A stretch of DNA of 64,000 nucleotides, taken from contig JAGKQI010000043.1 of NCBI GenBank assembly GCA_018806915.1, positions 62,001 through 126,000 of the forward strand, read 5' to 3'. The notes beneath the pieces were generated by a model, which ran no database searches, had not been told where the DNA came from, and saw nothing but the letters and a program-made list of their open reading frames with translations. The number at the start of each line of letters is the position of its first letter. Position 1 is the stretch's first letter. Shown here in pieces: positions 283 through 63,103 of this stretch. A program made the position numbers and the translations under genes. The DNA is from Phytophthora colocasiae. Its lineage: Eukaryota > Oomycota > Peronosporomycetes > Peronosporales > Peronosporaceae.

Positions 283-1313
283 TTACTGCCCGTCCACGAT
301 GGACAAGAGCAAGTCACGGTACTCGCCGCTCGTGTCGCCGCGGATGCGTTTGCTCAGCTCCTTGCCGTATTGCTTCTTGTACGCAACCTTGATCTGGGGC
401 AGCATGATGTGGTAACGCACCACTGCCGCGCTAAGTCCGTACTCGTCCGTGCCCAGACCCTTCATCGTGCTCTCGAAGAGGTCTGCCAACATCTCGAACG
501 GCTCGAACACCATGCGCACATGGTACAGAAGTGCCGCCTGGGCGTCGCCCTTGAACTCCCCCTTGATCGCCTTGAGAATGTTTGTCTTCTTGTACTTCTT
601 TGAGTACGCGGCGTCGATGTTGCGGAGGTGTTCAGCAGGACTCGAGACGATGATCCGAATGAACGTTTCCTCGTCCGTGCCCCACTTTCCTTCGCCTGCC
701 TTATACAAGGCCTCAGCGTCGGCAGCAGCCTTCGAACTCGAGTACACGGCAGGGTCGAAGCTCGGCAAGTCTCCCTTCATAGCGGCCATGATTACCTTCT
801 TCAGATCACCGCTTAGTTCGCCACGCAGGACGTTCACAAGGTCATCACCATAAATTTCACGATACGTTTTTTTCAGCATGGCAATCTCGACGTTCGAGCG
901 AGCCATCACGACCGGGTAGATCCACTCCTCCGTCGTACCCACGCCCTTTGTCGCTTTGCGCAGGATCTCAGCTTCCACGTGCTCGAGAGGGCTTGCGAGC
1001 ATCTTTAGTAGAACACTGTAGTCACTCGTGCTCTTTACCCAAACCGTCAGGTTTTTCTTGTACAGGGTGTAATAGCGCCACCAGATCAGATAACGCTGTT
1101 CAGCTGACATCGACACAAGGATCGTAGCCAGCGTCTTCTCATCCGATCCAGCACCAGTGAGTTTCGTGTGAATTTCTTGGACAGTAGCTTCGATGTCGGC
1201 GTACAGAGTGAGCGATGACCCACCAGAAATATCGTGTGCACTCTGGGGGTAGAAGTTACCAAAGGATAGAGATCTTACAATCGAAGTAGATAGCGTTCCC
1301 AACACAGAAGGCA
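283..1313 (-). other. Divergent terminal annexin module
   Basis: This module lacks the repeated Ser/Ala linker and begins with a unique stretch (SVPSVLGTLSTS, FGNFYPQSAHD). It keeps all four annexin repeats. Calcium-site motifs are complete in II (KGVGTTEE with a downstream GELSGD), III (KWGTDEE) and IV (KGLGTDE with GDTSGEY); repeat I lacks one (TGAGSDEKT). It is probably the ancestral copy from which the amplified module was derived, because it retains the repeat IV site that the 13 copies have lost. Confidence 0.8.
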
Positions 1314-15500: not shown

Positions 15501-18500
15501 GCGTCGCCAGAGAACTCCGCCTCGATCGCGCCCGTGACGCTCTTCTTGTACTTCGTCACGTACGCGCTGTTGATGCTGCGCACGTGCTCCGCAGGGCTCA
15601 ACACCAGGATGTTGATGAATGTCGTCTCATCGGTTCCCATGCGGCCTTCGCCAGCCTTGTACAAGGCATCTGCGTCCGCCGCAGCCTTCGTGCTCGTGTG
15701 GACAGACGCGTCGAAGTCCGCCACCTCGCCGCGCATTGCGGTCAAGATCACCTTCTTCAAGTCGCCGCTCAAATCGCCACTCAAGACCTTCACCAGGTCG
15801 TCGCCGTATTTCTCCGCGAACGTCTTCTTCAACAGCGCAATCTCGGCGTTCGAGCGAGCCATCACGACCGGGTAGATCCACTCCTCCGTCGTGCCCATGC
15901 CCTTGGTTGCCTTGCGCAGGATCTCGGCCTCCACATGCTCCAGAGGGCTCGCGAGCATCTGCAGCAGAACGCCGTAGTCGCTCGTACTCTTTACCCACAC
16001 CGTCAGGCTCTGCTTGTACAGAATGCGGTAGCGCCACCAGATCAGGTAGCGCTGCTCCACACTCTTCGACAGCAGCAGCTTCGCCAGCGCAGCCTCGTCC
16101 GAAGCCGAAGCCGCGCCAGTGCACACGCGCTGGATCTCCTGCGCAGCCGCGTCAATCTCAGACGAGAAAGTCATCGACTCCATGCTCGCGCTGCCCTTGT
16201 GCGCGTAGTGCGCGTACAGACCGCTCATCGCGGCACTACTGGCAGCCACCACAGCGGCGCTAGACGCCGCCATCCTCGACCCGCCAGACGCGCTCTCCTT
16301 CTCACTCACACTCACGGCAGAGCTCGACGAAATGCTCGCCTTCTCTTCAACCGACACACGTGCACCGATGGCAGCACTGCCCACAGCAGCACTTGAACCG
16401 CTCACACCAGCACTCACCGAAGTAGATCCAGACGTAGATGCAGCTCCAGACGAGCCGAACTCCGCCTCAGCAGACGCACCGAACTCCACCTCAGCCGCGT
16501 CGAACACGGACAAAAGAAGCTGGCGGTATTCGCCGCTCACCACACCCTCAATACGCGTGCGCAGCTCCTGGCGGTACAGACGCATGTACACGATGCGGAT
16601 GTGCACGAGGAGGCGGTAGTACCGCACAACCCACGCGCTCAGCCCGTACGCGTTCTTGCCGGCACTCTTCAGCGTCGTCTCGAACAGCTCCGCAAGAAGC
16701 TCCACCGGCTCCAGCACCGAGCGCACCTGGAACAGCAGCGCACGCTTGGCGTCGCCAGAGAACTCCGCCTCGATCGCGCCCGTGACGCTCTTCTTGTACT
16801 TCGTCACGTACGCGCTGTTGATGCTGCGCACGTGCTCCGCAGGGCTCCAACACCAGGATGTTGATGAATGTCGTCTCATCGGTTCCCATGCGGCCTTCGC
16901 CAGCCTTGTACAAGGCATCTGCGTCCGCCGCAGCCTTCGTGCTCGTGTGGACAGACGCGTCGAAGTCCGCCACCTCGCCGCGCATTGCGGTCAAGATCAC
17001 CTTCTTCAAGTCGCCGCTCAAATCGCCACTCAAGACCTTCACCAGGTCGTCGCCGTATTTCTCCGCGAACGTCTTCTTCAACAGCGCAATCTCGGCGTTC
17101 GAGCGAGCCATCACGACCGGGTAGATCCACTCCTCCGTCGTGCCCATGCCCTTGGTTGCCTTGCGCAGGATCTCGGCCTCCACATGCTCCAGAGGGCTCG
17201 CGAGCATCTGCAGCAGAACGCCGTAGTCGCTCGTACTCTTTACCCACACCGTCAGGCTCTGCTTGTACAGAATGCGGTAGCGCCACCAGATCAGGTAGCG
17301 CTGCTCCACACTCTTCGACAGCAGCAGCTTCGCCAGCGCAGCCTCGTCCGAAGCCGAAGTCGCGCCAGTGCACACGCGCTGGATCTCCTGCGCAGCCGCG
17401 TCAATCTCAGACGAGAAAGTCATCGACTCCATGCTCGCGCTGCCCTTGTGCGCGTAGTGCGCGTACAGACCGCTCATCGCGGCACTACCGGCAGCCACCA
17501 CAGCGGCGCTAGACGCCGCCATCCTCGACCCGCCAGATGCGCTCTCCTTCTCACTTGTCGATGTGGCTCTCTTATCTGCAGTCGTTAGAGTAGTTGTCTG
17601 TTTGGCTAGATTTGTTTCAGATAGTAAAACACTGTCGTCTGGAAAGCTGACGAAGGAGGATAATCGTTCGGTTCGCTGGTTCGCCTTCTGTTCGTTTGCA
17701 CCATCGATAACCGTGACGTGATACTTGGGATTTTGACGAGCACTGAGGCTGAGCAAAAACTCAGTGACCCCAATTTTTTGTGGTCCGGCGAACCCATGCT
17801 CTCGGAAGAATGCGAGAAGATATTTTCCCGACCCATAGAATACGGTTTCCCCGCCCTCCGTTATCAGAACATTTTCGTAGTCACCAGTCAGGTTAGGTGA
17901 TTCCTTCAGCATTGAGGTCAGGACTTGTGTACTTGCAACCTCAGACACCTGTTTGCCTTCACTAGGCATTTCATCGATCATCAAAACACGCTTGTACTGT
18001 CCAAACTCGACACCAAATTGGTGAACAGCAACCTCTGGGAAGTGAACCGACAGTGTTTGGGACACATTCCAAGCAGCTTGCTTCTCGTCCAACGAACCAC
18101 TTGCGTACAGATTTTCGTTGAAGCTGGAAAGACTATTCGAACAGAACTCCCGTGAAAGCTTCTGAACATCCGCCGAGTTTAGCGTCGAAACCTCTCTACC
18201 ACGGTTTTCGCAAAACCTGACGAACTCCTCCACCCACTTCCACTTGAACGAAGCCTTCTTCACCTCGACCAGCTTCGAACGATCCTTCATACCTCCGACG
18301 AGACTAAGGACAACAAGAGTATTCTGCTCCTCACCATTAACCCTCACAGAGCCCACAGAAACATTCTCACGACTGTGATCTCGACTCGTCACGGACTCCG
18401 TGGTCTCCCTCACTTCCGTCGTATCGGTCGAGCCGACATCGCTGGACGTAGCCGTAGAGCGAGTCGCGTGCACAGCAGACCCGATGGCGACTCCCGTGGC

Positions 18501-36500: not shown

Positions 36501-39500
36501 CGACTCGCCGGGGCGGCACCGGCCCCCACAGTCGTGCGGATGGCGCGACCTCCAGACACGGTCGTCGTGCTGTCAGACCCGGTCACGAGGCTGCTCTCCT
36601 CGGTCTCCGTCTCTTCACGCGTCTCCGTCTCCACGGTCGTGCTCTTCTCGCCGGACGTTGTCTCCGTCTCCGTCGTCGTCTCCACCTCGACGGTTCGCAC
36701 CACCTCGCCACTGGCAGTCGTCGAAGGACGCGACGTCGCCTTCACTGTCTTCGTCACGATGCTGCCGTCGGCCTCCTGCGTCTGGAACACCTCCGTCTGC
36801 ACCGACTCGCCGGGGGCGGCACCGGCCTCCACAGTCGTGCGGATGGCGCGACCTCCAGACACGGTCGTCGTGCTGTCAGACCCGGTCACGAGGCTGCTCT
36901 CCTCGGTCTCCGTCTCTTCACGCGTCTCCGTCTCCACGGTCGTGCTCTTCTCGCCGGACGTTGTCTCCGTCTCCGTCGTCGTCTCCACCTCGACGGTTCG
37001 CACCACCTCGCCACTGGCAGTCGTCGAAGGACGCGACGTCGCCTTCACTGTCTTCGTCACGATGCTGCCGTCGGCCTCCTGCGTCTGGAACACCTCCGTC
37101 TGCACCGACTCGCCGGGGCGGCACCGGCCTCCACAGTCGTGCGGATGGCGCGACCTCCAGACACGGTCGTCGTGCTGTCAGACCCGGTCACGAGGCTGCT
37201 CTCCTCGGTCTCCGTCTCTTCACGCGTCTCCGTTTCCACGGTCGTGCTCTTCTCGCCGGACGTTGTCTCCGTCTCCGTCGTCGTCTCCACCTCGACGGTT
37301 CGCACCACCACCTCGCCACTGGCAGTCGTCGAAGGACGCGACGTCGCCTTCACTGTCTTCGTCACGATGCTGCCGTCGGCCTCCTGCGTCTGGAACACTC
37401 TCCGTCTGCACCGACTCGCCGGGGCGGCACCGGCCACCACAGTCGTGCCGATGGCGCGACCTCCAGACACGGTCGTCGTGCTTTCAGACCCGGTCACCAG
37501 GCTGCTCTCCACGGTCTCCGTCTCTTCACGCGTCTCCGTCTCCACGGTCGTGCTCTTCTCGCCGGACGTTGTCACCGTCTCCGTCGTCGTCTCCACCTCG
37601 ACGGTCCGCACCACCTCGCCACTGGCAGTCGTCGAAGGACGCGACGTCGCCTTCACTGTCTTCGTCACGATGCTGCCGTCGGCCTCCTGCGTCTGGAACA
37701 CCTCCGTCTGCACCGACTCGCCGGGGCGGCACCGGCCTCCACAGTCGTGCGGATGGCGCGACCTCCAGACACGGTCGTCGTGCTGTCAGACCCGGTCACG
37801 AGGCTGCTCTCCTCGGTCTCCGTCTCTTCACGCGTCTCCGTCTCCACGGTCGTGCTCTTCTCGCCGGACGTTGTCTCCGTCTCCGTCGTCGTCTCCACCT
37901 CGACGGTTCGCACCACCTCGCCACTGGCAGTCGTCGAAGGACGCGACGTCGCCTTCACTGTCTTCGTCACGATGCTGCCGTCGGCCTCCTGCGTCTGGAA
38001 CACCTCCGTCTGCACCGACTCGCCGGGGCGGCACCGGCCTCCACAGTCGTGCGGATGGCGCGACCTCCAGACACGGTCGTCGTGCTGTCAGACCCGGTCA
38101 CGAGGCTGCTCTCCTCGGTCTCCGTCTCTTCACGCGTCTCCGTCTCCACGGTCGTGCTCTTCTCGCCGGACGTTGTCTCCGTCTCCGTCGTCGTCTCCAC
38201 CTCGACGGTTCGCACCACCTCGCCACTGGCAGTCGTCGAAGGACGCGACGTCGCCTTCACTGTCTTCGTCACGATGCTGCCGTCGGCCTCCTGCGTCTGG
38301 AACACCTCCGTCTGCACCGACTCGCCGGGGCGGCACCGGCCTCCACAGTCGTGCGGATGGCGCGACCTCCAGACACGGTCGTCGTGCTGTCAGACCCGGT
38401 CACGAGGCTGCTCTCCTCGGTCTCCGTCTCTTCACGCGTCTCCGTCTCCACGGTCGTGCTCTTCTCGCCGGACGTTGTCTCCGTCTCCGTCGTCGTCTCC
38501 ACCTCGACGGTTCGCACCACCTCGCCACTGGCAGTCGTCGAAGGACGCGACGTCGCCTTCACTGTCTTCGTCACGATGCTGCCGTCGGCCTCCTGCGTCT
38601 GGAACACCTCCGTCTGCACCGACTCGCCGGGGGCGGCACCGGCCTCCACAGTCGTGCGGATGGCGCGACCTCCAGACACGGTCGTCGTGCTGTCAGACCC
38701 GGTCACGAGGCTGCTCTCCTCGGTCTCCGTCTCTTCACGCGTCTCCGTCTCCACGGTCGTGCTCTTCTCGCCGGACGTTGTCTCCGTCTCCGTCGTCGTC
38801 TCCACCTCGACGGTTCGCACCACCTCGCCACTGGCGATCGTCGAAGGACGCGACGTCGTCGCCTTCACTGTCTTCGTCACGATGCCGCCGTCGGCCTCCT
38901 GCGTCTGGAACACCTCCGTCTGCACCGACTCGCCGGGGCGGCACCGGCCTCCACAGTCGTGCGGATGGCGCGACCTCCAGACACGGTCGTCGTGCTGTCA
39001 GACCCGGTCACGAGGCTGCTCTCCTCGGTCTCCGTCTCTTCACGCGTCTCCGTCTCCACGGTCGTGCTCTTCTCGCCGGACGTTGTCTCCGTCTCCGTCG
39101 TCGTCTCCACCTCGACGGTTCGCACCACCTCGCCACTGGCAGTCGTCGAAGGACGCGACGTCGTCTTCACTGTCTTCGTCACGATGCTGCCGTCGGCCTC
39201 CTGCGTCTGGAACACCTCCGTCTGCACCGACTCGCCGGGGCGGCACCGGCCTCCAGTCGTGCGGATGGCGCGACCTCCAGACACGGTCGTCGTGCTGTCA
39301 GACCCGGTCACGAGGCTGCTCTCCTCGGTCTCCGTCTCTTCACGCGTCTCCGTCTCCACGGTCGTGCTCTTCTCGCCGGACGTTGTCTCCGTCTCCGTCG
39401 TCGTCTCCACCTCGACGGTTCGCACCACCTCGCCACTGGTAGTCGTCGAAGGACGCGACGTCGCCTTCACTGTCTTCGTCACGATGCTGCCGTCGGCCGC

Positions 39501-42500
39501 CTGCGTCTGGAACACCTCCGTCTGCACCGACTCGCCGGGGGCGGCACCGGCCTCCACAGTCGTGCGGATGGCGCGACCTCCAGACACGGTCGTCGTGCTG
39601 TCAGACCCGGTCACGAGGCTGCTCTCCTCGGTCTCCGTCTCTTCACGCGTCTCCGTCTCCACGGTCGTGCTCTTCTCGCCGGACGTTGTCTCCGTCTCCG
39701 TCGTCGTCTCCACCTCGACGGTTCGCACCACCTCGCCACTGGCAGTCGTCGAAGGACGCGACGTCGCCTTCACTGTCTTCGTCACGATGCTGCCGTCGGC
39801 CTCCTGCGTCTGGAACACCTCCGTCTGCACCGACTCGCCGGGGGCGGCACCGGCCTCCACAGTCGTGCGGATGGCGCGACCTCCAGACACGGTCGTCGTG
39901 CTGTCAGACCCGGTCACGAGGCTGCTCTCCTCGGTCTCCGTCTCTTCACGCGTCTCCGTCTCCACGGTCGTGCTCTTCTCGCCGGACGTTGTCTCCGTCT
40001 CCGTTGTCGTCTCCACCTCGACCGTCCGCAACACCTCGCCTCTGGCAGTAGTTGACGTACGCGTCGTCGTCTTCACCGTCTTCGTCACGATGCTGCCGTC
40101 GGCCTCCTGCGTCTGGAACACCTCCGTCTGCACCGACTCGCCGGGGGCGGCACCGGCCTCCACAGTCGTGCGGATGGCGCGACCTCCAGACACGGTCGTC
40201 GTGCTGTCAGACCCGGTCACGAGGCTGCTCTCCTCGGTCTCCGTCTCTTCACGCGTCTCCGTCTCCACGGTCGTGCTCTTCTCGCCGGACGTTGTCTCCG
40301 TCTCCGTTGTCGTCTCCACCTCGACCGTCCGCAACACCTCGCCTCTGGCAGTAGTTGACGTACGCGTCGTCGTCTTCACCGTCTTCGTCACGATGCTGCC
40401 GTCGGCCTCCTGCGTCTGGAACACCTCCGTCTGCACCGACTCGCCGGGGGCGGCACCGGCCTCCACAGTCGTGCGGATGGCGCGACCTCCAGACACGGTC
40501 GTCGTGCTGTCAGACCCGGTCACGAGGCTGCTCTCCTCGGTCTCCGTCTCTTCACGCGTCTCCGTCTCCACGGTCGTGCTCTTCTCGCCGGACGTTGTCT
40601 CCGTCTCCGTTGTCGTCTCCACCTCGACCGTCCGCAACACCTCGCCTCTGGCAGTAGTTGACGTACGCGTCGTCGTCTTCACCGTCTTCGTCACGATGCT
40701 GCCGTCGGCCTCCTGCGTCTGGAACACCTCCGTCTGCACCGACTCGCCGGGGGCGGCACCGGCCTCCACAGTCGTGCGGATGGCGCGACCTCCAGACACG
40801 GTCGTCGTGCTGTCAGACCCGGACACGAGGCTGCTCTCCTCGGTCTCCGTCTCTTCACGCGTCTCCGTCTCCACGGTCGTGCTCTTCTCGCCGGACGTTG
40901 TCTCCGTCTCCGTCGTCGTCTCCACCTCGACAGTTCGCACCACCTCGCCACTGGCAGTCGTCGAAGGACGCGACGTCGCCTTCACTGTCTTCGTCACGAT
41001 GCTGCCGTCGGCCTCCTGCGTCTGGAACACCTCCGTCTGCACCGACTCGCCGGGGGCGGCACCGGCCTCCACAGTCGTGCGGATGGCGCGACCTCCAGAC
41101 ACGGTCGTCGTGCTGTCAGACCCGGTCACGAGGCTGCTCTCCTCGGTCTCCGTCTCTTCACGCGTCTCCGTCTCCACGGTCGTGCTCTTCTCGCCGGACG
41201 TTGTCTCCGTCTCCGTCGTCGTCTCCACCTCGACGGTTCGCACCACCTCGCCACTGGCAGTCGTCGAAGGACGCGACGTCGCCTTCACTGTCTTCGTCAC
41301 GATGCTGCCGTCGGCCTCCTGCGTCTGGAACACCTCCGTCTGCACCGACTCGCCGGGGGCGGCACCGGCCTCCACAGTCGTGCGGATGGCGCGACCTCCA
41401 GACACGGTCGTCGTGCTGTCAGACCCGGTCACGAGGCTGCTCTCCTCGGTCTCCGTCTCTTCACGCGTCTCCGTCTCCACGGTCGTGCTCTTTTCGCCGG
41501 ACGTTGTCTCCGTCTCCGTCGTCGTCTCCACCTCGACGGTTCGCACCACCTCGCCACTGGCAGTCGTCGAAGGACGCGACGTCGCCTTCACTGTCTTCGT
41601 CACGATGCTGCCGTCGGCCTCCTGCGTCTGGAACACCTCCGTCTGCACCGACTCGCCGGGGGCGGCACCGGCCTCCACAGTCGTGCGGATGGCGCGACCT
41701 CCAGACACGGTCGTCGTGCTGTCAGACCCGGTCACGAGGCTGCTCTCCTCGGTCTCCGTCTCTTCACGCGTCTCCGTCTCCACGGTCGTGCTCTTCTCGC
41801 CGGACGTTGTCTCCGTCTCCGTTGTCGTCTCCACCTCAACCGTCCGCAACACCTCGCCTCTGGCAGTAGTTGACGTACGCGTCGTCGTCTTCACCGTCTT
41901 CGTCACGATGCTGCCGTCGGCCTCCTGCGTCTGGAACACCTCCGTTTGCACCGACTCGCCGGGGGCGGCACCGGCCTCCACGGTCGACCGGATGGCGCGG
42001 CTACCGCCGGACACGGCCTTTGAGGCTCCGGAAGCAGTCGCCAGGCTACTCTCCTCCGTCTCCGTCTCTTCACGCGTCTCTGTCTCCACGGTCGTGCTCT
42101 TCTCGCCGGACGTTGTCTCCGTCTCCGTTGTCGTCTCCACCTCGACCGTCCGCAACACCTCGCCTCTGGCAGTAGTTGACGTACGCGTCGTCGTCTTCAC
42201 CGTCTTCGTCACGATGCTGCCGTCGGCCTCCTGCGTCTGGAACACCTCCGTTTGCACCGACTCGCCGGGGGCGGCACCGGCCTCCACGGTCGACCGGATG
42301 GCGCGGCTACCGCCGGACACGGCCTTTGAGGCTCCGGAAGCAGTCGCCAGGCTACTCTCCTCCGTCTCCGTCTCCGTCTCTTCACGCGTCTCTGTCTCCA
42401 CGGTCGTGCTCTTCTCGCCGGACGTTGTCTCCGTCTCCGTTGTCGTCTCCACCTCGACCGTCCGCAACACCTCGCCTCTGGCAGTAGTTGACGTACGCGT

Positions 42501-45500
42501 CGTCGTCTTCACCGTCTTCGTCACGATGCTGCCGTCGGCCTCCTGCGTCTGGAACACCTCCGTTTGCACCGACTCGCCGGGGCGGCACCGGCCTCCACGG
42601 TCGACCGGATGGCGCGGCTCCCGCCGGACACGGCCCCCGAGCCACCGGAAGCCGCCAGGCTACTCTCCTCCGTCTCCGTCTCTTCACGCGTCTCTGTCTC
42701 CACGGTCGTGCTCTTCTCGCCGGACGTTGTCTCCGTCTCCGTTGTCGTCTCCACCTCGACCGTCCGCAACACCTCGCCTCTGGCAGTAGTTGACGTACGC
42801 GTCGTCGTCTTCACCGTCTTCGTCACGATGCTGCCGTCGGCCTCCTGCGTCTGGAACACCTCCGTTTGCACCGACTCGCCGGGGGCGCACCGGCCTCCAC
42901 GGTCGACTGGATGGCGCGGCTACCGCCGGACACGGCCTTTGAGGCACCGGAAGCAGTCGCCAGGCTACTCTCCTCCGTCTCCGTCTCTTCACGCGTCTCT
43001 GTCTCCACGGTCGTGCTCTTCTCGCCGGACGTTGTCTCCGTCTCCGTTGTCGTCTCCACCTCGACCGTCCGCAACACCTCGCCTCTGGCAGTAGGTTGAC
43101 GTACGCGTCGTCGTCTTCACCGTCTTCGTCACGATGCTGCCGTCGGCCTCCTGCGTCTGGAACACCTCCGTTTGCACCGACTCGCCGGGGGCGGCACCGG
43201 CCTCCACGGTCGACCGGATGGCGCGGCTACCGCCGGACACGGCCTTTGAGGCACCGGAAGCAGTCGCCAGGCTACTCTCCTCCGTCTCCGTCTCTTCACG
43301 CGTCTCTGTCTCCACGGTCGTGCTCTTCTCGCCGGACGTTGTCTCCGTCTCCGTTGTCGTCTCCACCTCGACCGTCCGCAACACCTCGCCTCTGGCAGTA
43401 GTTGACGTACGCGTCGTCGTCTTCACCGTCTTCGTCACGATGCTGCCGTCGGCCTCCTGCGTCTGGAACACCTCCGTTTGCACCGACTCGCCGGGGGCGG
43501 CACCGGCCTCCACGGTCGACCGGATGGCGCGGCTACCGCCGGACACGGCCTTTGAGGCTCCGGAAGCCGCCAGGCTACTCTCCTCCGTCTCCGTCTCTTC
43601 ACGCGTCTCTGTCTCCACGGTCGTGCTCTTCCCGCCGGACGTTGTCTCCGTCTCCGTTGTCGTCTCCACCTCGACCGTCCGCAACACCTCGCCTCTGGCA
43701 GTAGTTGACGTACGCGTCGTCGTCTTCACCGTCTTCGTCACGATGCTGCCGTCGGCCTCCTGCGTCTGGAACACCTCCGTTTGCACCGACTCGCCGGGGC
43801 GGCACCGGCCTCCACGGTCGACCGGATGGCGCGGCTACCGCCGGACACGGCCTTTGAGGCTCCGGAAGCAGTCGCCAGGCTACTCTCCTCCGTCTCCGTC
43901 TCTTCACGCGTCTCTGTCTCCACGGTCGTGCTCTTCTCGCCGGACGTTGTCTCCGTCTCCGTTGTCGTCTCCACCTCGACCGTCCGCAACACCTCGCCTC
44001 TGGCAGTAGTTGACGTACGCGTCGTCGTCTTCACCGTCTTCGTCACGATGCTGCCGTCGGCCTCCTGCGTCTGGAACACCTCCGTTTGCACCGACTCGCC
44101 GGGGGCGGCACCGGCCTCCACGGTCGACCGGATGGCGCGGCTACCGCCGGACACGGCCTTTGAGGCTCCGGAAGCCGCCAGGCTACTCTCCTCCGTCTCC
44201 GTCTCTTCACGCGTCTCTGTCTCCACGGTCGTGCTCTTCCGCCGGACGTTGTCTCCGTCTCCGTTGTCGTCTCCACCTCGACCGTCCGCAACACCTCGCC
44301 TCTGGCAGATAGTTGACGTACGCGTCGTCGTCTTCACCGTCTTCGTCACGATGCTGCCGTCGGCCTCCTGCGTCTGGAACACCTCCGTTTGCACCGACTC
44401 GCCGGGGGCGGCACCGGCCTCCACGGTCGACCGGATGGCGCGGCTACCGCCGGACACGGCCTTTGAGGCTCCGGAAGCAGTCGCCAGGCTACTCTCCTCC
44501 GTCTCCGTCTCTTCACGCGTCTCTGTCTCCACGGTCGTGCTCTTCTCGCCGGACGTTGTCTCCGTCTCCGTTGTCGTCTCCACCTCGACCGTCCGCAACA
44601 CCTCGCCTCTGGCGATGGTTGACGTACGCGTCGTCGTCTTCACCGTCTTCGTCACGATGCTGCCGTCGGCCTCCTGCGTCTGGAACACCTCCGTTTGCAC
44701 CGACTCGCCGGGGGCGGCACCGGCCTCCACGGTCGACCGGATGGCGCGGCTACCGCCGGACACGGCCTTTGAGGCTCCGGAAGCCGCCAGGCTACTCTCC
44801 TCCGTCTCCGTCTCTTCACGCGTCTCTGTCTCCACGGTCGTGCTCTTCCCGCCGGACGTTGTCTCCGTCTCCGTTGTCGTCTCCACCTCGACCGTCCGCA
44901 ACACCTCGCCTCTGGCAGTAGTTGACGTACGCGTCGTCGTCTTCACCGTCTTCGTCACGATGCTGCCGTCGGCCTCCTGCGTCTGGAACACCTCCGTTTG
45001 CACCGACTCGCCGGGGGCGGCACCGGCCTCCACGGTCGACCGGATGGCGCGGCTACCGCCGGACACGGCCTTTGAGGCTCCGGAAGCAGTCGCCAGGCTA
45101 CTCTCCTCCGTCTCCGTCTCTTCACGCGTCTCTGTCTCCACGGTCGTGCTCTTCTCGCCGGACGTTGTCTCCGTCTCCGTTGTCGTCTCCACCTCGACCG
45201 TCCGCAACACCTCGCCTCTGGCAGTAGTTGACGTACGCGTCGTCGTCTTCACCGTCTTCGTCACGATGCTGCCGTCGGCCTCCTGCGTCTGGAACACCTC
45301 CGTTTGCACCGACTCGCCGGGGGCGGCACCGGCCTCCACGGTCGACCGGATGGCGCGGCTACCGCCGGACACGGCCTTTGAGGCTCCGGAAGCAGTCGCC
45401 AGGCTACTCTCCTCCGTCTCCGTCTCCGTCTCTTCACGCGTCTCTGTCTCCACGGTCGTGCTCTTCTCGCCGGACGTTGTCTCCGTCTCCGTTGTCGTCT

Positions 45501-48500
45501 CCACCTCGACCGTCCGCAACACCTCGCCTCTGGCAGCAGTTGACGTACGCGTCGTCGTCTTCACCGTCTTCGTCACGATGCTGCCGTCGGCCTCCTGCGT
45601 CTGGAACACCTCCGTTTGCACCGACTCGCCGGGGGCGGCACCGGCCTCCACGGTCGACCGGATGGCGCAGCTACCGCCGGACACGGCCTTTGAGGCACCG
45701 GAAGCAGTCGCCAGGCTACTCTCCTCCGTCTCCGTCTCTTCACGCGTCTCTGTCTCCACGGTCGTGCTCTTCTCGCCGGACGTTGTCTCCGTCTCCGTTG
45801 TCGTCTCCACCTCAACCGTCCGCAACACCTCGCCTCTGGCAGTAGTTGACGTACGCGTCGTCGTCTTCACCGTCTTCGTCACGATGCTGCCGTCGGCCTC
45901 CTGCGTCTGGAACACCTCCGTTTGCACCGACTCGCCGGGGGCGGCACCGGCCTCCACGGTCGACCGGATGGCGCGGCTACCGCCGGACACGGCCTTTGAG
46001 GCTCCGGAAGCAGTCGCCAGGCTACTCTCCTCCGTCTCCGTCTCTTCACGCGTCTCTGTCTCCACGGTCGTGCTCTTCCCGCCGGACGTTGTCTCCGTCT
46101 CCGTTGTCGTCTCCACCTCCACCGTCCGCAACACCTCGCCTCTGGCAGTAGTTGACGTACGCGTCGTCGTCTTCACCGTCTTCGTCACGATGCTGCCGTC
46201 GGCCTCCTGCGTCTGGAACACCTCCGTTTGCACCGACTCGCGGCGGCACCGGCCTCCACGGTCGACCGGATGGCGCGGCTACCGCCGGACACGGCCTTTG
46301 AGGCTCCGGAAGCCGCCAGGCTACTCTCCTCCGTCTCCGTCTCTTCACGCGTCTCTGTCTCCACGGTCGTGCTCTTCTCGCCGGACGTTGTCTCCGTCTC
46401 CGTTGTCGTCTCCACCTCGACCGTCCGCAACACCTCGCCTCTGGCAGTAGTTGACGTACGCGTCGTCGTCTTCACCGTCTTCGTCACGATGCTGCCGTCG
46501 GCCTCCTGCGTCTGGAACACCTCCGTTTGCACCGACTCGCCGGGGGCGGCACCGGCCTCCACGGTCGACCGGATGGCGCGGCTACCGCCGGACACGGCCT
46601 TTGAGGCACCGGAAGCAGTCGCCAGGCTACTCTCCTCCGTCTCCGTCTCTTCACGCGTCTCTGTCTCCACGGTCGTGCTCTTCTCGCCGGACGTTGTCTC
46701 CGTCTCCGTTGTCGTCTCCACCTCGACCGTCCGCAACACCTCGCCTCTGGCAGTAGTTGACGTACGCGTCGTCGTCTTCACCGTCTTCGTCACGATGCTG
46801 CCGTCGGCCTCCTGCGTCTGGAACACCTCCGTTTGCACCGACTCGCCGGGGGCGGCACCGGCCTCCACGGTCGACCGGATGGCGCGGCTACCGCCGGACA
46901 CGGCCTTTGAGGCACCGGAAGCAGTCGCCAGGCTACTCTCCTCCGTCTCCGTCTCCGTCTCTTCACGCATCTCTGTCTCCACGGTCGTGCTCTTCCCGCC
47001 GGACGTTGTCTCCGTCTCCGTTGTCGTCTCCACCTCGACCGTCCGCAACACCTCGCCTCTGGCAGTAGTTGACGTACGCGTCGTCGTCTTCACCGTCTTC
47101 GTCACGATGCTGCCGTCGGCCTCCTGCGTCTGGAACACCTCCGTTTGCACCGACTCGGCGGGGGCGGCACCGGCCTCCACGGTCGACCGGATGGCGCGGC
47201 TACCGCCGGACACGGCCTTTGAGGCTCCGGAAGCAGTCGCCAGGCTACTCTCCTCCGTCTCCGTCTCTTCACGCGTCTCTGTCTCCACGGTCGTGCTCTT
47301 CTCGCCGGACGTTGTCTCCGTCTCCGTTGTCGTCTCCACCTCGACCGTCCGCAACACCTCGCCTCTGGCAGTAGTTGACGTACGCGTCGTCGTCTTCACC
47401 GTCTTCGTCACGATGCTGCCGTCGGCCTCCTGCGTCTGGAACACCTCCGTTTGCACCGACTCGCCGGGGGCGGCACCGGCCTCCACGGTCGACCGGATGG
47501 CGCGGCTACCGCCGGACACGGCCTTTGAGGCTCCGGAAGCCGCCAGGCTACTCTCCTCCGTCTCCGTCTCTTCACGCGTCTCTGTCTCCACGGTCGTGCT
47601 CTTCTCGCCGGACGTTGTCTCCGTCTCCGTTGTCGTCTCCACCTCAACCGTCCGCAACACCTCGCCTCTGGCAGTAGTTGACGTACGCGTCGTCGTCTTC
47701 ACCGTCTTCGTCACGATGCTGCCGTCGGCCTCCTGCGTCTGGAACACCTCCGTTTGCACCGACTCGCCGGGGGCGGCACCGGCCTCCACGGTCGACCGGA
47801 TGGCGCGGCTACCGCCGGACACGGCCTTTGAGGCTCCGGAAGCAGTCGCCAGGCTACTCTCCTCCGTCTCCGTCTCTTCACGCGTCTCTGTCTCCACGGT
47901 CGTGCTCTTCTCGCCGGACGTTGTCTCCGTCTCCGTTGTCGTCTCCACCTCGACCGTCCGCAACACCTCGCCTCTGGCAGCAGTTGACGTACGCGTCGTC
48001 GTCTTCACCGTCTTCGTCACGATGCTGCCGTCGGCCTCCTGCGTCTGGAACACCTCCGTTTGCACCGACTCGCCGGGGGCGGCACCGGCCTCCACGGTCG
48101 ACCGGATGGCGCGGCTACCGCCGGACACGGCCTTTGAGGCACCGGAAGCAGTCGCCAGGCTACTCTCCTCCGTCTCCGTCTCTTCACGCGTCTCTGTCTC
48201 CACGGTCGTGCTCTTCTCGCCGGACGTTGTCTCCGTCTCCGTTGTCGTCTCCACCTCAACCGTCCGCAACACCTCGCCTCTGGCAGTAGTTGACGTACGC
48301 GTCGTCGTCTTCACCGTCTTCGTCACGATGCTGCCGTCGGCCTCCTGCGTCTGGAACACCTCCGTTTGCACCGACTCGCCGGGGGCGGCACCGGCCTCCA
48401 CGGTCGACCGGATGGCGCAGCTACCGCCGGACACGGCGCTTGAGGCTCCGGAAGCAGTCGCCAGGCTACTCTCCTCCGTCTCCGTCTCTTCACGCGTCTC

Positions 48501-51500
48501 TGTCTCCACGGTCGTGCTCTTCCCGCCGGACGTTGTCTCCGTTGTCGTCTCCACCTCGACCGTCCGCAACACCTCGCCTCTGGCAGCAGTTGACGTACGC
48601 GTCGTCGTCTTCACCGTCTTCGTCACGATGCTGCCGTCGGCCTCCTGCGTCTGGAACACCTCCGTTTGCACCGACTCGCCGGGGGCGGCACCGGCCTCCA
48701 CGGTCGACCGGATGGCGCAGCTACCGCCGGACACGGCCTTTGAGGCACCGGAAGCAGTCGCCAGGCTACTCTCCTCCGTCTCCGTCTCTTCACGCGTCTC
48801 TGTCTCCACGGTCGTGCTCTTCTCGCCGGACGTTGTCTCCGTCTCCGTTGTCGTCTCCACCTCAACCGTCCGCAACACCTCGCCTCTGGCAGTAGTTGAC
48901 GTACGCGTCGTCGTCTTCACCGTCTTCGTCACGATGCTGCCGTCGGCCTCCTGCGTCTGGAACACCTCCGTTTGCACCGACTCGCCGGGGGCGGCACCGG
49001 CCTCCACGGTCGACCGGATGGCGCGGCTACCGCCGGACACGGCCTTTGAGGCTCCGGAAGCAGTCGCCAGGCTACTCTCCTCCGTCTCCGTCTCTTCACG
49101 CGTCTCTGTCTCCACGGTCGTGCTCTTCCCGCAGGACGTTGTCTCCGTCTCCGTTGTCGTCTCCACCTCGACCGTCCGCAACACCTCGCCTCTGGCAGTA
49201 GTTGACGTACGCGTCGTCGTCTTCACCGTCTTCGTCACGATGCTGCCGTCGGCCTCCTGCGTCTGGAACACCTCCGTTTGCACCGACTCGCCGGGGGCGG
49301 CACCGGCCTCCACGGTCGACCGGATGGCGCGGCTACCGCCGGACACGGCCTTTGAGGCACCGGAAGCAGTCGCCAGGCTACTCTCCTCCGTCTCCGTCTC
49401 TTCACGCATCTCTGTCTCCACGGTCGTGCTCTTCTCGCCGGACGTTGTCTCCGTCTCCGTTGTCGTCTCCACCTCGACCGTCCGCAACACCTCGCCTCTG
49501 GCAGTAGTTGACGTACGCGTCGTCGTCTTCACCGTCTTCGTCACGATGCTGCCGTCGGCCTCACTGCGTCTGGAACACCTCCGTTTGCACCGACTCGCCG
49601 GGGGCGGCACCGGCCTCCACGGTCGACCGGATGGCGCGGCTACCGCCGGACACGGCCTTTGAGGCTCCGGAAGCCGCCAGGCTACTCTCCTCCGTCTCCG
49701 TCTCTTCACGCGTCTCTGTCTCCACGGTCGTGCTCTTCTCGCCGGACGTTGTCTCCGTCTCCGTTGTCGTCTCCACCTCAACCGTCCGCAACACCTCGCC
49801 TCTGGCAGTAGTTGACGTACGCGTCGTCGTCTTCACCGTCTTCGTCACGATGCTGCCGTCGGCCTCCTGCGTCTGGAACACCTCCGTTTGCACCGACTCG
49901 CCGGGCGGCACTGGCCTCCACGGTCGACCGGATGGCGCGGCTACCGCCGGACACGGCCTTTGAGGCACCGGAAGCAGTCGCCAGGCTACTCTCCTCCGTC
50001 TCCGTCTCTTCACGCGTCTCTGTCTCCACGGTCGTGCTCTTCTCGCCGGACGTTGTCTCCGTCTCCGTTGTCGTCTCCACCTCGACCGTCCGCAACACCT
50101 CGCCTCTGGCAGCAGTTGACGTACGCGTCGTCGTCTTCACCGTCTTCGTCACGATGCTGCCGTCGGCCTCCTGCGTCTGGAACACCTCCGTTTGCACCGA
50201 CTCGCCGGGGGCGGCACCGGCCTCCACGGTCGACCGGATGGCGCGGCTACCGCCGGACACGGCCTTTGAGGCACCGGAAGCAGTCGCCAGGCTACTCTCC
50301 TCCGTCTCCGTCTCTTCACGCGTCTCTGTCTCCACGGTCGTGCTCTTCTCGCCGGACGTTGTCTCCGTCTCCGTTGTCGTCTCCACCTCAACCGTCCGCA
50401 ACACCTCGCCTCTGGCAGTAGTTGACGTACGCGTCGTCGTCTTCACCGTCTTCGTCACGATGCTGCCGTCGGCCTCCTGCGTCTGGAACACCTCCGTTTG
50501 CACCGACTCGCCGGGGGCGGCACCGGCCTCCACGGTCGACCGGATGGCGCGGCTACCGCCGGACACGGCCTTTGAGGCTCCGGAAGCAGTCGCCAGGCTA
50601 CTCTCCTCCGTCTCCGTCTCTTCACGCGTCTCTGTCTCCACGGTCGTGCTCTTCCCGCCGGACGTTGTCTCCGTTGTCGTCTCCACCTCGACCGTCCGCA
50701 ACACCTCGCCTCTGGCAGTAGTTGACGTACGCGTCGTCGTCTTCACCGTCTTCGTCACGATGCTGCCGTCGGCCTCCTGCGTCTGGAACACCTCCGTTTG
50801 CACCGACTCGCCGGGGGCGGCACCGGCCTCCACGGTCGACCGGATGGCGCGGCTACCGCCGGACACGGCCTTTGAGGCTCCGGAAGCAGTCGCCAGGCTA
50901 CTCTCCTCCGTCTCCGTCTCTTCACGCGTCTCTGTCTCCACGGTCGTGCTCTTCTCGCCGGACGTTGTCTCCGTCTCCGTTGTCGTCTCCACCTCGACCG
51001 TCCGCAACACCTCGCCTCTGGCAGCAGTTGACGTACGCGTCGTCGTCTTCACCGTCTTCGTCACGATGCTGCCGTCGGCCTCCTGCGTCTGGAACACCTC
51101 CGTTTGCACCGACTCGCCGGGGGCGGCACCGGCCTCCACGGTCGACCGGATGGCGCGGCTACCGCCGGACACGGCCTTTGAGGCACCGGAAGCAGTCGCC
51201 AGGCTACTCTCCTCCGTCTCCGTCTCTTCACGCGTCTCTGTCTCCACGGTCGTGCTCTTCTCGCCGGACGTTGTCTCCGTCTCCGTTGTCGTCTCCACCT
51301 CAACCGTCCGCAACACCTCGCCTCTGGCAGTAGTTGACGTACGCGTCGTCGTCTTCACCGTCTTCGTCACGATGCTGCCGTCGGCCTCCTGCGTCTGGAA
51401 CACCTCCGTTTGCACCGACTCGCCGGGGGCGGCACCGGCCTCCACGGTCGACCGGATGGCGCGGCTACCGCCGGACACGGCCTTTGAGGCTCCGGAAGCA

Positions 51501-53806
51501 GTCGCCAGGCTACTCTCCTCCGTCTCCGTCTCTTCACGCGTCTCTGTCTCCACGGTCGTGCTCTTCCCGCCGGACGTTGTCTCCGTTGTCGTCTCCACCT
51601 CGACCGTCCGCAACACCTCGCCTCTGGCAGCAGTTGACGTACGCGTCGTCGTCTTCACCGTCTTCGTCACGATGCTGCCGTCGGCCTCCTGCGTCTGGAA
51701 CACCTCCGTTTGCACCGACTCGCCGGGGGCGGCACCGGCCTCCACGGTCGACCGGATGGCGCAGCTACCGCCGGACACGGCCTTTGAGGCACCGGAAGCA
51801 GTCGCCAGGCTACTCTCCTCCGTCTCCGTCTCTTCACGCGTCTCTGTCTCCACGGTCGTGCTCTTCTCGCCGGACGTTGTCTCCGTCTCCGTTGTCGTCT
51901 CCACCTCAACCGTCCGCAACACCTCGCCTCTGGCAGTAGTTGACGTACGCGTCGTCGTCTTCACCGTCTTCGTCACGATGCTGCCGTCGGCCTCCTGCGT
52001 CTGGAACACCTCCGTTTGCACCGACTCGCCGGGGGCGGCACCGGCCTCCACGGTCGACCGGATGGCGCGGCTACCGCCGGACACGGCCTTTGAGGCTCCG
52101 GAAGCCGCCAGGCTACTCTCCTCCGTCTCCGTCTCTTCACGCGTCTCTGTCTCCACGGTCGTGCTCTTCCCGCAGGACGTTGTCTCCGTCTCCGTTGTCG
52201 TCTCCACCTCGACCGTCCGCAACACCTCGCCTCTGGCAGTAGTTGACGTACGCGTCGTCGTCTTCACCGTCTTCGTCACGATGCTGCCGTCGGCCTCCTG
52301 CGTCTGGAACACCTCCGTTTGCACCGACTCGCCGGGGGCGGCACCGGCCTCCACGGTCGACCGGATGGCGCGGCTACCGCCGGACACGGCCTTTGAGGCA
52401 CCGGAAGCAGTCGCCAGGCTACTCTCCTCCGTCTCCGTCTCTTCACGCGTCTCTGTCTCCACGGTCGTGCTCTTCTCGCCGGACGTTGTCTCCGTCTCCG
52501 TTGTCGTCTCCACCTCGACCGTCCGCAACACCTCGCCTCTGGCAGTAGTTGACGTACGCGTCGTCGTCTTCACCGTCTTCGTCACGATGCTGCCGTCGGC
52601 CTCCTGCGTCTGGAACACCTCCGTTTGCACCGACTCGCCGGGGGCGGCACCGGCCTCCACGGTCGACCGGATGGCGCGGCTACCGCCGGACACGGCCTTT
52701 GAGGCACCGGAAGCAGTCGCCAGGCTACTCTCCTCCGTCTCCGTCTCCGTCTCTTGACGCGTCTCTGTCTCCACGGTCGTGCTCTTCTCGCCGGACGTTG
52801 TCTCCGTCTCCGTTGTCGTCTCCACCTCGACCGTCCGCAACACCTCGCCTCTGGCAGTAGTTGACGTACGCGTCGTCGTCTTCACCGTCTTCGTCACGAT
52901 GCTGCCGTCGGCCTCCTGCGTCTGGAACACCTCCGTTTGCACCGACTCGCCGGGGGCGGCACCGGCCTCCACGGTCGACCGGATGGCGCGGCTACCGCCG
53001 GACACGGCCTTTGAGGCACCGGAAGCAGTCGCCAGGCTACTCTCCTCCGTCTCCGTCTCCGTCTCTTCACGCATCTCTGTCTCCACGGTCGTGCTCTTCT
53101 CGCCGGACGTTGTCTCCGTCTCCGTTGTCGTCTCCACCTCGACCGTCCGCAACACCTCGCCTCTGGCAGTAGTTGACGTACGCGTCGTCGTCTTCACCGT
53201 CTTCGTCACGATGCTGCCGTCGGCCTCCTGCGTCTGGAACACCTCCGTTTGCACTGACTCGCCGGGGGTGGTGGTGTTTGTTGCTGTTGCAGTGGCTGAT
53301 GCAGGGCTTTGCGTTTGCTTGGCATCATGGCCTTTGTGGAGGCGTTTACCTTCCACCTCCGTCGTCGTTTCCGTCTTGACTGATGTTGTTATTTCTCCGT
53401 TTGTGGCTTCCGTTTCCGTAGTCGTCTCCACTTCGACTGTCGTGATGAGTTCTCCGGCAGCTGACATCTTTGTGCGTCGTGTAGTCTTGACAGTCTTGGT
53501 GACGACACATCCATCAGGCTCCACCGTGCGGAAAACCTCCGTTTTGGTGTCCTCCCCCTCAGAGGGGGCCTTACTCGGGTCGTTCGGCTCCGTCTCGGGC
53601 TCGTGGGACGACTTGGCGCCCTTGCTGCTGCTGCTTTTCTGCTCGCTCACGGCTTCAAAGTCCGTGACGGGCGCTTTCTTCTCCGTGCTCGTCGTTGTCG
53701 TCGTGTACGTGGTCACGCCGCCCTCCACTGTCTTCACCTGCTTCTTGGCCGCCGCCGCCAGTTTCTTCTGCTTGGTATCCATCTCGGCCGACTCGGCTCC
53801 TCCCAT
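283..53806 (-). CDS. Giant TETE-repeat / ABCG-remnant / poly-annexin protein (frame interrupted by indels)
   Basis: One minus-strand coding path runs from an ATG at 53806 to TAA at 283 with no intervening unique DNA and no intron I can see. Domain order is: unique head; ~104 Thr/Glu repeats; ~8 Thr/Ser/Gly repeats; degenerate ABCG NBD; 13 near-identical annexin modules; one divergent annexin module. Colinear length would be about 17,800 residues. The sense strand is certain because the annexin and ABC homology both read on it, and an independent relic at 55.6-59.3 kb encodes the same TETE motifs in the sense direction. The frame is broken by several dozen 1-5 base indels, mostly G5 to G4 in the TETE array, and by two nonsense codons near 20.33-20.35 kb. 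Both sides of each break resume the same repeat in a shifted frame, so consensus error is likelier than many separate genes. A real pseudogene, or several shorter genes, remains possible. Annexins bind acidic phospholipids in the presence of calcium; the overall role here is unknown. Confidence 0.7.
4086..10323 (-). CDS. Open segment: five consecutive annexin modules
   Basis: This is the longest unbroken annexin stretch, about 2,080 codons and five 416-residue modules in a single frame. Both ends are the same lesion, loss of one C in CAGCTCCTGGCGG (giving CAGCTCTGGCGG), at about 10323 and 4085. Identical lesions 6.24 kb (five units) apart suggest either one real variant copied with the array or a systematic consensus error. 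Inside the block there is no start or stop between modules, so they are domains of one polypeptide, not tandem genes. Confidence 0.55.
12470..16846 (-). CDS. Open segment: about 3.5 annexin modules
   Basis: A single frame of about 1,460 codons bounded by an extra C at about 16847 (GGGCTCCAACACC instead of GGGCTCAACACC) and an extra C at about 12469 (GCGTACCAGACC instead of GCGTACAGACC). It includes a unit with an extra alanine codon near 13771. It is internal to the giant gene. Confidence 0.5.
16848..20330 (-). CDS. Open segment joining 438-bp repeats, ABCG remnant and first annexin module
   Basis: One continuous frame runs from just below the TAA at 20331 through about 4.5 Thr/Ser repeats, the ABCG-like region and into the first annexin module, ending at the extra base near 16847. 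This segment is the key proof that the repeat stalk, the ATPase remnant and the annexins belong to the same polypeptide. The junction reads QTTTLTTADKRATSTSEKES without a splice site or stop. Confidence 0.6.
17554..18385 (-). other. Degenerate ABCG/PDR nucleotide-binding domain inside the giant protein
   Basis: About 277 unique residues sit between the repeats and the annexins. They match, from family knowledge, the first NBD of PDR-type ABCG transporters. LVVLSLVGGMKDRSKLVEV sits where the Walker A strand and loop should be but lacks GxxGxGKS/T. FCSNSLSSFNENL and HFPEVAVHQFGVEF correspond to the helical region after the Q-loop. KRVLMIDEM retains a Walker B-like hhhhDE. YENVLITEGGETVFYGSGKYL and FLLSLSARQNPKYHV match the post-H-loop end (LNEGEVMYHG, FLLDLGTNQ in typical family members). 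The stretch holding the VSGGE signature is missing between VEFGQY and Walker B. ATP hydrolysis is therefore not expected. The plus-strand relic at 56.3-56.8 kb shares the same deletion. Confidence 0.65.
18386..21800 (-). repeat. 438-bp tandem repeat, ~7.8 copies (146-residue Thr/Ser/Gly unit)
   Basis: The unit contains, in order, SGWTSGTGVSQQ, a run of TTE triplets, EETTVTEEDVAPTTVTSG, SIESSDTTVTSEDISG, a small hydrophobic stretch (GVTAGVVGVATGVAIGSAV), HATRSTATSSDVGSTDTTEV, and Thr/Ser-rich SVTSGDVSAVTSEDVSSDVT. Copies differ by only a few substitutions: GENKK or GESKK, SGDVS or SEDVS, and HAVT or HAVM. One copy carries a substituted patch with stops at 20325-20381, and another has a one-base loss at about 20598. 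The hydrophobic stretch is about 19 residues, rich in Gly, Val and Ala, and recurs once per unit. Confidence 0.85.
20325..20381 (-). other. Substituted patch with two in-frame stop codons
   Basis: Over 57 bp this copy of the 438-bp unit differs from all others at many positions but has exactly the same length. On the minus strand the in-frame codons include TAG (20343-20345) and TAA (20331-20333), where other copies read SGSIESSDTT. It is unlike the indel errors elsewhere in the array and would truncate the protein if real. Confidence 0.6.
21807..40015 (-). repeat. TETE repeat array, subfamily A (~303 bp units)
   Basis: About 60 tandem units of 302-303 bp. They differ from B by KATSRPSTTASGEVVRTVEVE in place of KTTTRTSTTARGEVLRTVEVE and by LVTGSDSTTTVSGGRAIRTT in place of LATASGASKAVSGGSRAIRST. 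Units are nearly identical at base level. Minor variants are PGES versus PGET, TQEADG versus TQAADG, and SGSDS versus TGSDS. Many units carry four rather than five Gs before CGGCACCGGCC, which shifts the frame by one each time. The array ends at about 21807, where it meets the 438-bp repeat. Confidence 0.85.
38943..42582 (-). CDS. Open segment of the giant gene spanning the B-to-A TETE transition
   Basis: About 12 units in one frame, running from B-type through hybrid units to A-type. It is limited upstream by a G4 tract near 42583 and downstream by a G4 tract near 38939. Within it, a G4 at about 39237 and a two-base loss in CTCCACAGTCG at about 39253 cancel each other, leaving a short altered peptide (TTGGRCRPGES). 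That compensation keeps the frame. Confidence 0.4.
40016..42010 (-). repeat. Hybrid A/B TETE units
   Basis: Units at about 40.02-40.68 kb and again near 41.84 kb have the B-type half (ARGEVLRTVEVE, coding for TTTRTSTT) joined to the A-type half (EESSLVTGSDSTTTVSGGRAIRTT). Pure A units lie between them at about 40.7-41.8 kb. This mosaic is what unequal crossing over or gene conversion between two subfamilies produces. Confidence 0.75.
42011..53265 (-). repeat. TETE repeat array, subfamily B (~306 bp units)
   Basis: About 37 tandem units of 300-312 bp, each about 102 residues. Landmarks in order are PGESVQTEVFQTQ, EADGSIVTKTVK, TTTRTSTTARGEVLRTVEVE, TTTETETTSGEKSTTVETET, then EESSLATASGASKAVSGGSRAIRSTVEAGAA. 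Alternating Thr/Glu/Val residues separated by turn-like ADGS, ARGE and TSGE suggest beta hairpins, which is inference. Length variants differ by multiples of three: an extra or missing TE pair, AAS versus ATAS, and TTSGG versus TETTSGE. This protects the frame. Parts are organised as a 912-bp three-unit higher-order repeat. Confidence 0.85.
46243..49562 (-). CDS. Open segment of the giant gene, B-type TETE units
   Basis: About 11 TETE units in one frame. The upstream limit is an extra A at about 49564 (GCCTCACTGCG instead of GCCTCCTGCG). The downstream limit is a five-base loss at about 46240 (GACTCGCGGCGG instead of GACTCGCCGGGGGCGG). It has no start or stop of its own and is best read as an internal part of the giant protein. 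Confidence 0.4.
49906..53806 (-). CDS. Longest intact N-terminal open segment of the giant gene
   Basis: From the ATG at 53806 the frame is open for about 1,300 codons through the head and roughly 11 B-type TETE units. It is then lost where the G5 tract is shortened by two bases at about 49903-49907 (GCCGGGCGGCAC instead of GCCGGGGGCGGCAC). This is the best uninterrupted evidence that the TETE array is translated from this start. A conservative gene model might end here, but the TETE repeat continues immediately in another frame. Confidence 0.55.
53266..53806 (-). other. Unique N-terminal head of the giant protein
   Basis: The ATG at 53804-53806 gives MGGAESAEMDTKQKK, followed by a basic stretch, a Thr run, a Ser-rich acidic stretch and a first divergent TETE unit (KTEVFRTVEPDGCVVTKTVK). 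I preferred this ATG because the codon five triplets upstream (53819-53821) is GTG. No signal peptide or membrane segment is visible, so a cytosolic start is expected. The divergent unit here resembles the single units of the plus-strand relic (FRSEEADGSIVTKT) more than the amplified array does, so it probably preserves an older form. The head ends where the Ala/Thr-rich spacer meets the first PGESVQTEVF unit. Confidence 0.65.
53789..53806 (-). other. Candidate N-myristoylation signal (MGGAES)
   Basis: The first six residues are Met-Gly-Gly-Ala-Glu-Ser, matching the general M-G-x-x-x-S/T rule for N-myristoyltransferase substrates. This is a short motif and only predictive. It would give the protein a lipid anchor at the end opposite its annexin modules. 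Confidence 0.35.
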
Positions 53807-55243: not shown

Positions 55244-55372
55244 CATGCATAGCCCATATCATGCTTGATGCGTTGCTTTCGACGGATGAATTTGGTTCAG
55301 CGTTATGCGTACATGCATAGCCCATATCATGCTTGATGCGTTGCTTTCGACGGATGAATTTGGTTCAGCGTT
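55244..55372. repeat. 61-bp perfect direct duplication
   Basis: The segment 55244-55304 (starting CATGCATAGCCCATATCATG) is repeated exactly at 55312-55372 with a 7-bp spacer, giving a 68-bp period. It lies just outside the inverted repeat and upstream of the relic gene. No function is evident. Confidence 0.85.
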
Positions 55373-62984: not shown

Positions 62985-63096
62985 TGTCTTGAGAATAGAG
63001 TGTTTGGGTTGAGGCGAGTCGATCTGCTTCAAAGTGGAATTCTCGCTAAGTGGTGTCGTCGACCACGAAATCTGTGACGTGTGTGCATTGACAGAG

Positions 63097-63103
63097 AGAG
63101 TGA
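63097..63103 (-). promoter_or_regulatory. Candidate oomycete initiator (Inr) of the ROK kinase gene
   Basis: On the minus strand the sequence GCTCACTCTCTC contains TCACTCT, matching the oomycete initiator consensus YCAYTYY, in the GCTCA context often seen around it. It lies about 115 bp upstream of the ATG at 62984. A flanking FPR element (CAWTTTNYY) is not clearly present. Confidence 0.35.

What the first reader, a model, noticed from the sequence alone, without database searches (positions are those of the whole stretch)
283..53806. A ~53.5-kb intronless gene fusing a repeat stalk, an ABC ATPase remnant and 14 annexin modules
The frame joins TETE repeats, 438-bp repeats, a degenerate ABCG NBD and annexin modules with no gap of unique non-coding DNA. 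The segment 16848-20330 alone proves three of these parts are fused. I know of no described protein with this architecture; typical annexins have one four-repeat core (two in annexin A6). At about 17,800 residues it would rank with titin-scale proteins.
Basis: partly seen in the sequence, partly recalled or inferred. Interest (0 to 1): 0.92.

Follow-up and report, generated by a model that had tools for sequence, protein, structure and literature searches.

The report
Giant annexin gene in a Phytophthora-like oomycete
A Phytophthora-like water mould carries a very large gene that joins a long repetitive stalk, a dead transporter-ATPase remnant and fourteen calcium-dependent membrane-binding modules; relatives share the unusual domain order, but the full length still needs proof from RNA or protein.

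Summary
The architecture is real. On the minus strand, ATG at 53806 to stop at 283, lie in order: a head (MGGAES...), about 104 Thr/Glu-rich units of 303/306 bp, 7.8 copies of a 438-bp repeat, a remnant of a PDR-type ABCG nucleotide-binding domain, 13 internal annexin cores and a divergent 14th. Each junction between parts falls inside one open frame. Gene models of P. idaei and P. kernoviae hold all five parts uninterrupted; a P. boehmeriae model lacks only the 438-bp anchor. The ABC-like/annexin fusion occurs in nine Phytophthora species by Pfam annotation. A trehalose-phosphate synthase/phosphatase gene follows here and in a P. cactorum model. In this assembly the frame is broken: about 35 net shifts. 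In the stalk they look like consensus errors: all 24 off-frame units of 85 aligned have a shortened C run, and units identical elsewhere carry both lengths. This is indirect; the 17,800-residue length is unproven, and models elsewhere carry at most three cores, perhaps by collapse. A sister giant gene shares head, stalk and ABC remnant; no annexin was found there. Best reading: a cytosolic, probably N-myristoylated, Ca2+-switched membrane tether; function is inferred.

The parts
53249..53806 (-). Head: start codon, MGGAESAEMD..., ...VTDFEAVSEQK..., then a first degenerate stalk-like stretch
   Evidence: MGG[AT]ES head also in P0004, P0009, P0014, P0016, P0017 and MGGTES in the sister gene
21809..53268 (-). 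Thr/Glu-rich stalk of 303/306-bp units, about 104 by length (94 anchors found), two subtypes meeting near 39-41 kb
18379..21802 (-). 438-bp (146-aa) repeats, 7.8 copies
17544..18347 (-). Pseudo-ABC domain: remnant of the first nucleotide-binding domain of a PDR-type ABCG transporter; Walker A and signature stretches missing
1207..17543 (-). 13 internal annexin modules of about 1248 bp with their linkers; the 12 aligned units differ from the majority at 0-5 alignment columns each
283..1206 (-). Divergent 14th (terminal) annexin core ending ...LLLSIVDGQ, with stop codon
56006..57785 (+). Decayed stalk-like and ABC-like pieces of a sister gene, head-to-head with the giant; not part of it

Best explanation
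It is one protein-coding gene of Phytophthora and its kin: a giant annexin. Most frame shifts are consensus errors of the assembly in repeats. The protein is cytosolic (no signal peptide by eye). Its N-terminus fits the N-myristoylation motif MGxxxS (recalled) and would sit in a membrane; a long, charged, probably disordered Thr/Glu stalk follows; the pseudo-ABC domain is a binding or folding module, not an ATPase; the C-terminal row of 14 annexin cores binds acidic membranes when Ca2+ rises. Many sites on one chain would give a steep, high-avidity Ca2+ switch that tethers vesicles or cortical membrane to the plasma membrane. Shown: domain order, its conservation, constraint on the annexin protein sequence, loss of ATPase motifs, Ca2+-site motifs. 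Inferred: full length, lipid anchor, disorder, tethering.
For: Two head-to-end models of other species with all five parts, two more with part of them; 12 of the 14 hits carry Pfam annexin next to the ABC-like stretch. Trehalose-phosphate synthase and phosphatase domains follow the gene here and are run onto the P. cactorum model P0008. Internal against terminal core: dN 0.25, dS 0.97 over 303 codons by NG86 (the YN00 run failed). Third-position GC 0.80 in head+stalk and 0.76 in the last annexin frame. All 24 off-frame stalk units of 85 aligned have a shortened C run, and 22 units identical outside it carry both lengths; the remaining shared indels are multiples of three. GxGT...D/E in repeat II of 3 of 3 cores tested and in repeat IV of the terminal core. 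Head motif kept in the sister gene.
Against: No transcript, peptide or read was available. Models elsewhere have at most three annexin cores and at most three stalk anchors; collapse is assumed. The sister gene's arrays, without that C run, are also off frame in 8 of 30 and 13 of 61 spacings, by scattered single bases, so the C run does not explain all breaks. The exact four-C form is uneven: 2 of 42 units in one subarray, 18 of 43 in the other, which evenly spread error does not predict. Five off-frame stalk spacings were too long to be aligned. The pseudo-ABC stretch has low third-position GC, 0.52. Its fold could not be predicted (mean pLDDT 44.6).
Confidence: 0.6

Rival explanations
1. The gene is real but the array lengths are wrong: the fused gene has few modules, and the 14 annexin cores and about 104 stalk units are inflated or mis-assembled.
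For: Models in other species have at most three annexin cores; the internal modules are almost identical, as mis-joined copies would be.
Against: The array lies inside a 1.65-Mb contig, with stalk subtypes in blocks rather than uniform copies. P. sojae has three annexin models all listed with a contig of 379,513 bases, two of them marked partial, as expected for an array broken by gaps.
Confidence: 0.2
2. The frame shifts are real and the locus is a decayed array, perhaps with short transcripts from intact stretches.
For: About 35 net shifts in this assembly; the shortened C run is concentrated in one half of the stalk; a decayed sister piece lies next door.
Against: Decay should bring substitutions too, but 12 annexin modules show 14 changed codons and five one-base indels in about 15 kb, and 22 stalk units are identical outside one run. 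Uninterrupted models exist in other species; dN/dS between cores is about 0.26.
Confidence: 0.13
3. Several adjacent genes (stalk gene, 438/ABC gene, annexin gene) only appear joined.
For: Frames are broken between the frames that carry the junctions.
Against: Each junction lies inside one frame, and head-to-end models exist in other species.
Confidence: 0.07

Closest known systems
Annexin A6 (two four-repeat cores)
   Same: Annexin repeats; the best PDB matches of the last 1128 residues are two annexin VI chains, aligned on the terminal core. A review calls its eight repeats unique (PMC10882027, passages).
   Different: 14 cores instead of two, plus stalk, pseudo-ABC domain and head.
Annexin A13b (N-myristoylated annexin)
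   Same: N-terminal lipid modification of an annexin is known (PMC10882027, passages); the head here fits the motif.
   Different: No stalk; one core (recalled); modification here only predicted.
Ordinary oomycete annexins (one core)
   Same: The same genome holds at least four further annexin loci. A Saprolegnia annexin is a glucan synthase activator, and two annexin homologues were found in Phytophthora cell-wall proteomes (PMC4656261, passages).
   Different: One core, no fusion seen in the frames printed.
PDR-type ABCG transporters of Phytophthora
   Same: Pseudo-ABC domain is collinear with the first nucleotide-binding domain.
   Different: Walker A and signature stretches missing, no membrane domains.
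Giant vesicle protein Lpv of Phytophthora zoospores
   Same: Phytophthora makes glycoproteins over 400 kDa (PMC3869178, passages).
   Different: Lpv is stored inside vesicles; the word annexin does not occur in that paper.

Membership tests
Annexin family | Annexin repeats (Pfam PF00191) | tested here: met
   E=1e-129, 10 stretches in the last 1128 residues; own-genome search
Annexin family | Four-repeat core | tested here: met
   Anchors for repeats I, II, III 14 each, repeat IV 13; the terminal repeat IV is divergent but a Pfam match
Annexin family | Type II Ca2+ sites GxGT...D/E | tested here: met
   Repeat II in 3 of 3 cores tested, repeat IV in the terminal core only; repeat III GTDE by eye; repeats I and internal IV lack the motif
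Annexin family | Ca2+-dependent binding to acidic membranes | not testable with these tools
   needs protein
ABC ATPase | Homology to a nucleotide-binding domain | tested here: met
   no Pfam ABC hit, best PDB hit only E=0.14
ABC ATPase | Walker A and signature motif | tested here: not met
   In P0032 the match begins after Walker A, and the stretch with the signature lies between the two matched segments; neither is seen in the alignment. Motif names recalled.
N-myristoylated proteins | MGxxxS/T N-terminus | tested here: met
   MGGAES here; pattern MGG[AT]ES in 5 returned relatives; MGGTES in sister gene. Consensus recalled; modification itself untested
Single intronless gene | One uninterrupted frame and one transcript | tested here: inconclusive
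   About 35 net shifts; no RNA data

The most novel reading that the evidence does not exclude
A single protein near 17,800 residues, about half of titin (recalled size), in which a lipidated head and a roughly 10,000-residue stalk carry fourteen annexin cores: a Ca2+-operated, multivalent membrane tether, with a sister giant that shares head, stalk and pseudo-ABC domain but not the annexins.
Probability: 0.4. Interest if true: 0.85.

Novelty: new variant of a known kind. Interest (0 to 1): 0.64.

Why it matters
Annexins are known as one- or two-core proteins; fourteen cores on one chain would test how avidity shapes Ca2+ switching. The pseudo-ABC domain is a transporter ATPase recycled as a non-catalytic part. 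The gene is shared across Phytophthora but appears in the database mostly as fragments, so a conserved structural protein may have been overlooked. It also warns that repeat genes in an assembly can look like pseudogenes.

Tried and rejected
Plus-strand coding: frames up to 4748 aa are open there, but all three plus frames are stop-poor in the repeats (31-48 stops against 160-191 on the minus frames, which the shifts scramble), and relatives match the minus strand; rejected. Structure of the ABC-like domain: a nine-row alignment gave mean pLDDT 44.6; no fold search was run. PDB sequence search of that domain: best E 0.14, ABCG25. The third protein search, with residues 215-1050 of one annexin frame, gave 11 proteins, only P0035 new; searches scored only the candidates sharing most words. 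Literature: ten searches listed no paper that I recognised as describing this protein; I saw listings, and passages of PMC4656261, PMC12249911, PMC3869178, PMC3894181 and PMC10882027. I expected the sister arrays, lacking the C run, to be free of shifts; they are not. Unique genes as a control for error rate are weak, since I picked the longest frame of each locus: 12 frames, 26.9 kb, 20 runs of five or more C or G. The second half of the checking script failed; only its first two lines are used. The species was not identified.

Full report
What is there. The window is bases 62001-126000 of contig C36 (1.65 Mb) in a 92.5-Mb, 105-contig genome. The minus strand carries a start codon at 53806 (MGGAESAEMD...) and a stop at 283. 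Between them lie, in order, the head; the Thr/Glu-rich stalk (tandem repeats 36072-53268 and 21809-36080); the 438-bp repeats, 18379-21802; an ABC-like stretch, 17544-18347; and annexin modules down to the stop. Anchors for annexin repeats I, II and III occur 14 times each; the repeat IV anchor occurs 13 times because the last core is divergent. The stalk gives 94 anchors, about 104 units by length.

Is it one frame? Each junction between parts lies within one open frame: head to stalk (49778-53821), stalk to 438-bp repeats (20579-22702), 438-bp repeats through the ABC-like stretch into annexin (16548-20330), and the last annexin modules to the stop (283-3669). Elsewhere the frame shifts: 29 of 93 stalk spacings and 1 of 7 spacings of the 438-bp repeats are not multiples of three, and 12 aligned annexin modules hold five one-base indels and one three-base insertion. 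I read most of these as consensus errors. Of the 85 stalk units that could be aligned, 24 are off frame, and all 24 have a shortened run of C at one place. A group of 22 units identical outside that run contains ten with four C, nine with five and three variants. The remaining indels shared by several units are multiples of three. Substitutions are few: 7 synonymous and 7 nonsynonymous codon differences in the 12 annexin modules. Against this, the shortened run is uneven: 2 of 42 units in one subarray and 18 of 43 in the other, counting the exact four-C form; and the sister gene's arrays, without that run, are off frame in 8 of 30 and 13 of 61 spacings by scattered single bases. Five off-frame stalk spacings were too long for the alignment. 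So the error reading is likely but not proven.

Relatives. A search with the ABC-like stretch found 14 proteins, all from Phytophthora (P. idaei, ramorum, aleatoria, cactorum, megakarya, fragariae, sojae, kernoviae, infestans, boehmeriae); 12 of 14 list Pfam annexin, from nine species. A profile of the stretch matches all 14, seven of which gave it rows. P0004 (P. idaei) and P0014 (P. kernoviae) run from MGGAES to ...VDGQ with stalk, 438-type repeat, ABC-like stretch and two annexin cores. P0016 (P. boehmeriae) does the same with one core; no 438-type anchor was found in it and its stalk unit was seen by eye only. P0017 (P. kernoviae) is shorter, ends VDDQ, and lacks repeat I and II anchors. 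The P. fragariae fragment P0012 holds three cores, the most seen. A second search added annexin modules of Hyaloperonospora brassicae and H. arabidopsidis, without the ABC-like stretch in those models. P. sojae has three models listed with contig length 379,513 (P0013, P0018, P0019). The P. cactorum model P0008 carries trehalose-phosphate synthase and phosphatase domains behind the ABC-like part, and frames with the same two Pfam domains follow the giant here (E=1.2e-118 and 1.7e-34), so the loci appear orthologous.

The ABC remnant. The best own-genome matches outside the family are frames of 668-1445 aa, E 1.2e-6 at best, which hold PDR-type domains where checked. NCBIfam's PDR model matches at 4e-6; Pfam gives nothing. 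A profile from nine rows matches transporter P0032 in two collinear segments, residues 154-235 and 289-371. Walker A lies before the first segment and the signature between the two, so both are missing here. It is not an ATPase by these criteria. The fold could not be predicted with confidence.

Constraint. Internal against terminal annexin core, over 303 codons: dN 0.25, dS 0.97 (NG86; YN00 failed). The two stalk subtypes differ at 22 third, 8 first and 5 second codon positions (17 synonymous and 13 nonsynonymous codons). Third-position GC is 0.80 in head+stalk, 0.76 in the last annexin frame, 0.68 in the 438+ABC stretch, but 0.52 in the ABC-like part alone. The annexin reading is therefore under selection, at least since the cores diverged.

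Sister genes. Contig C35 bears a second giant on the minus strand, about 1392.2 kb down to 1358.9 kb, with head MGGTES, two pseudo-ABC stretches, related stalk arrays and a further 282-bp array, also with broken frames; no annexin match was listed there. A decayed piece with stalk-like and ABC-like stretches lies head-to-head with the giant in the window. Seven returned proteins from P. cactorum, P. idaei, P. aleatoria and P. nicotianae list protein-kinase and annexin Pfam domains (P0025, P0027-P0031, P0035); six of the seven hold a stalk anchor.

Mechanism. The head fits the N-myristoylation motif (recalled). The two stalk units are 63% and 66% T, S, E and V with net charge -8 and -11, so disorder is likely (inference). 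GxGT...D/E sites stand in repeat II of the three cores tested and in repeat IV of the terminal core; repeat III looks intact by eye. Annexins bind acidic membranes through Ca2+ and can bridge membranes (PMC10882027, passages). Hence the proposal of a lipid-anchored, Ca2+-switched, multivalent tether. This is inference from parts, at about one in three for the specific role.

Verdict. A genuine, conserved fusion gene and a new variant of the annexin family; the full length and role await RNA, protein and accurate reads.

Noticed in passing
window 56006-57785 (+): Decayed stalk-like and ABC-like pieces of a sister gene, head-to-head with the giant.
   Followed up: partly
G000 C35:1358935-1392264 (-), loci L033-L037: Second giant gene with MGGTES head, two pseudo-ABC stretches and several arrays, frames broken too, no annexin match listed.
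   Followed up: partly
P0025, P0027-P0031, P0035: Phytophthora proteins listing protein-kinase and annexin domains; six of seven hold a stalk anchor.
   Followed up: partly
L041 (C36:1424026-1426682): Two annexin genes in inverted orientation whose printed cores look the same.
   Followed up: no
window 62103-63149 (-): Open frame of 349 aa of the ROK family, Pfam E=2.1e-46.
   Followed up: no
window 55244-55372: A 68-bp unit repeated 1.9 times at 100% identity upstream of the giant.
   Followed up: no
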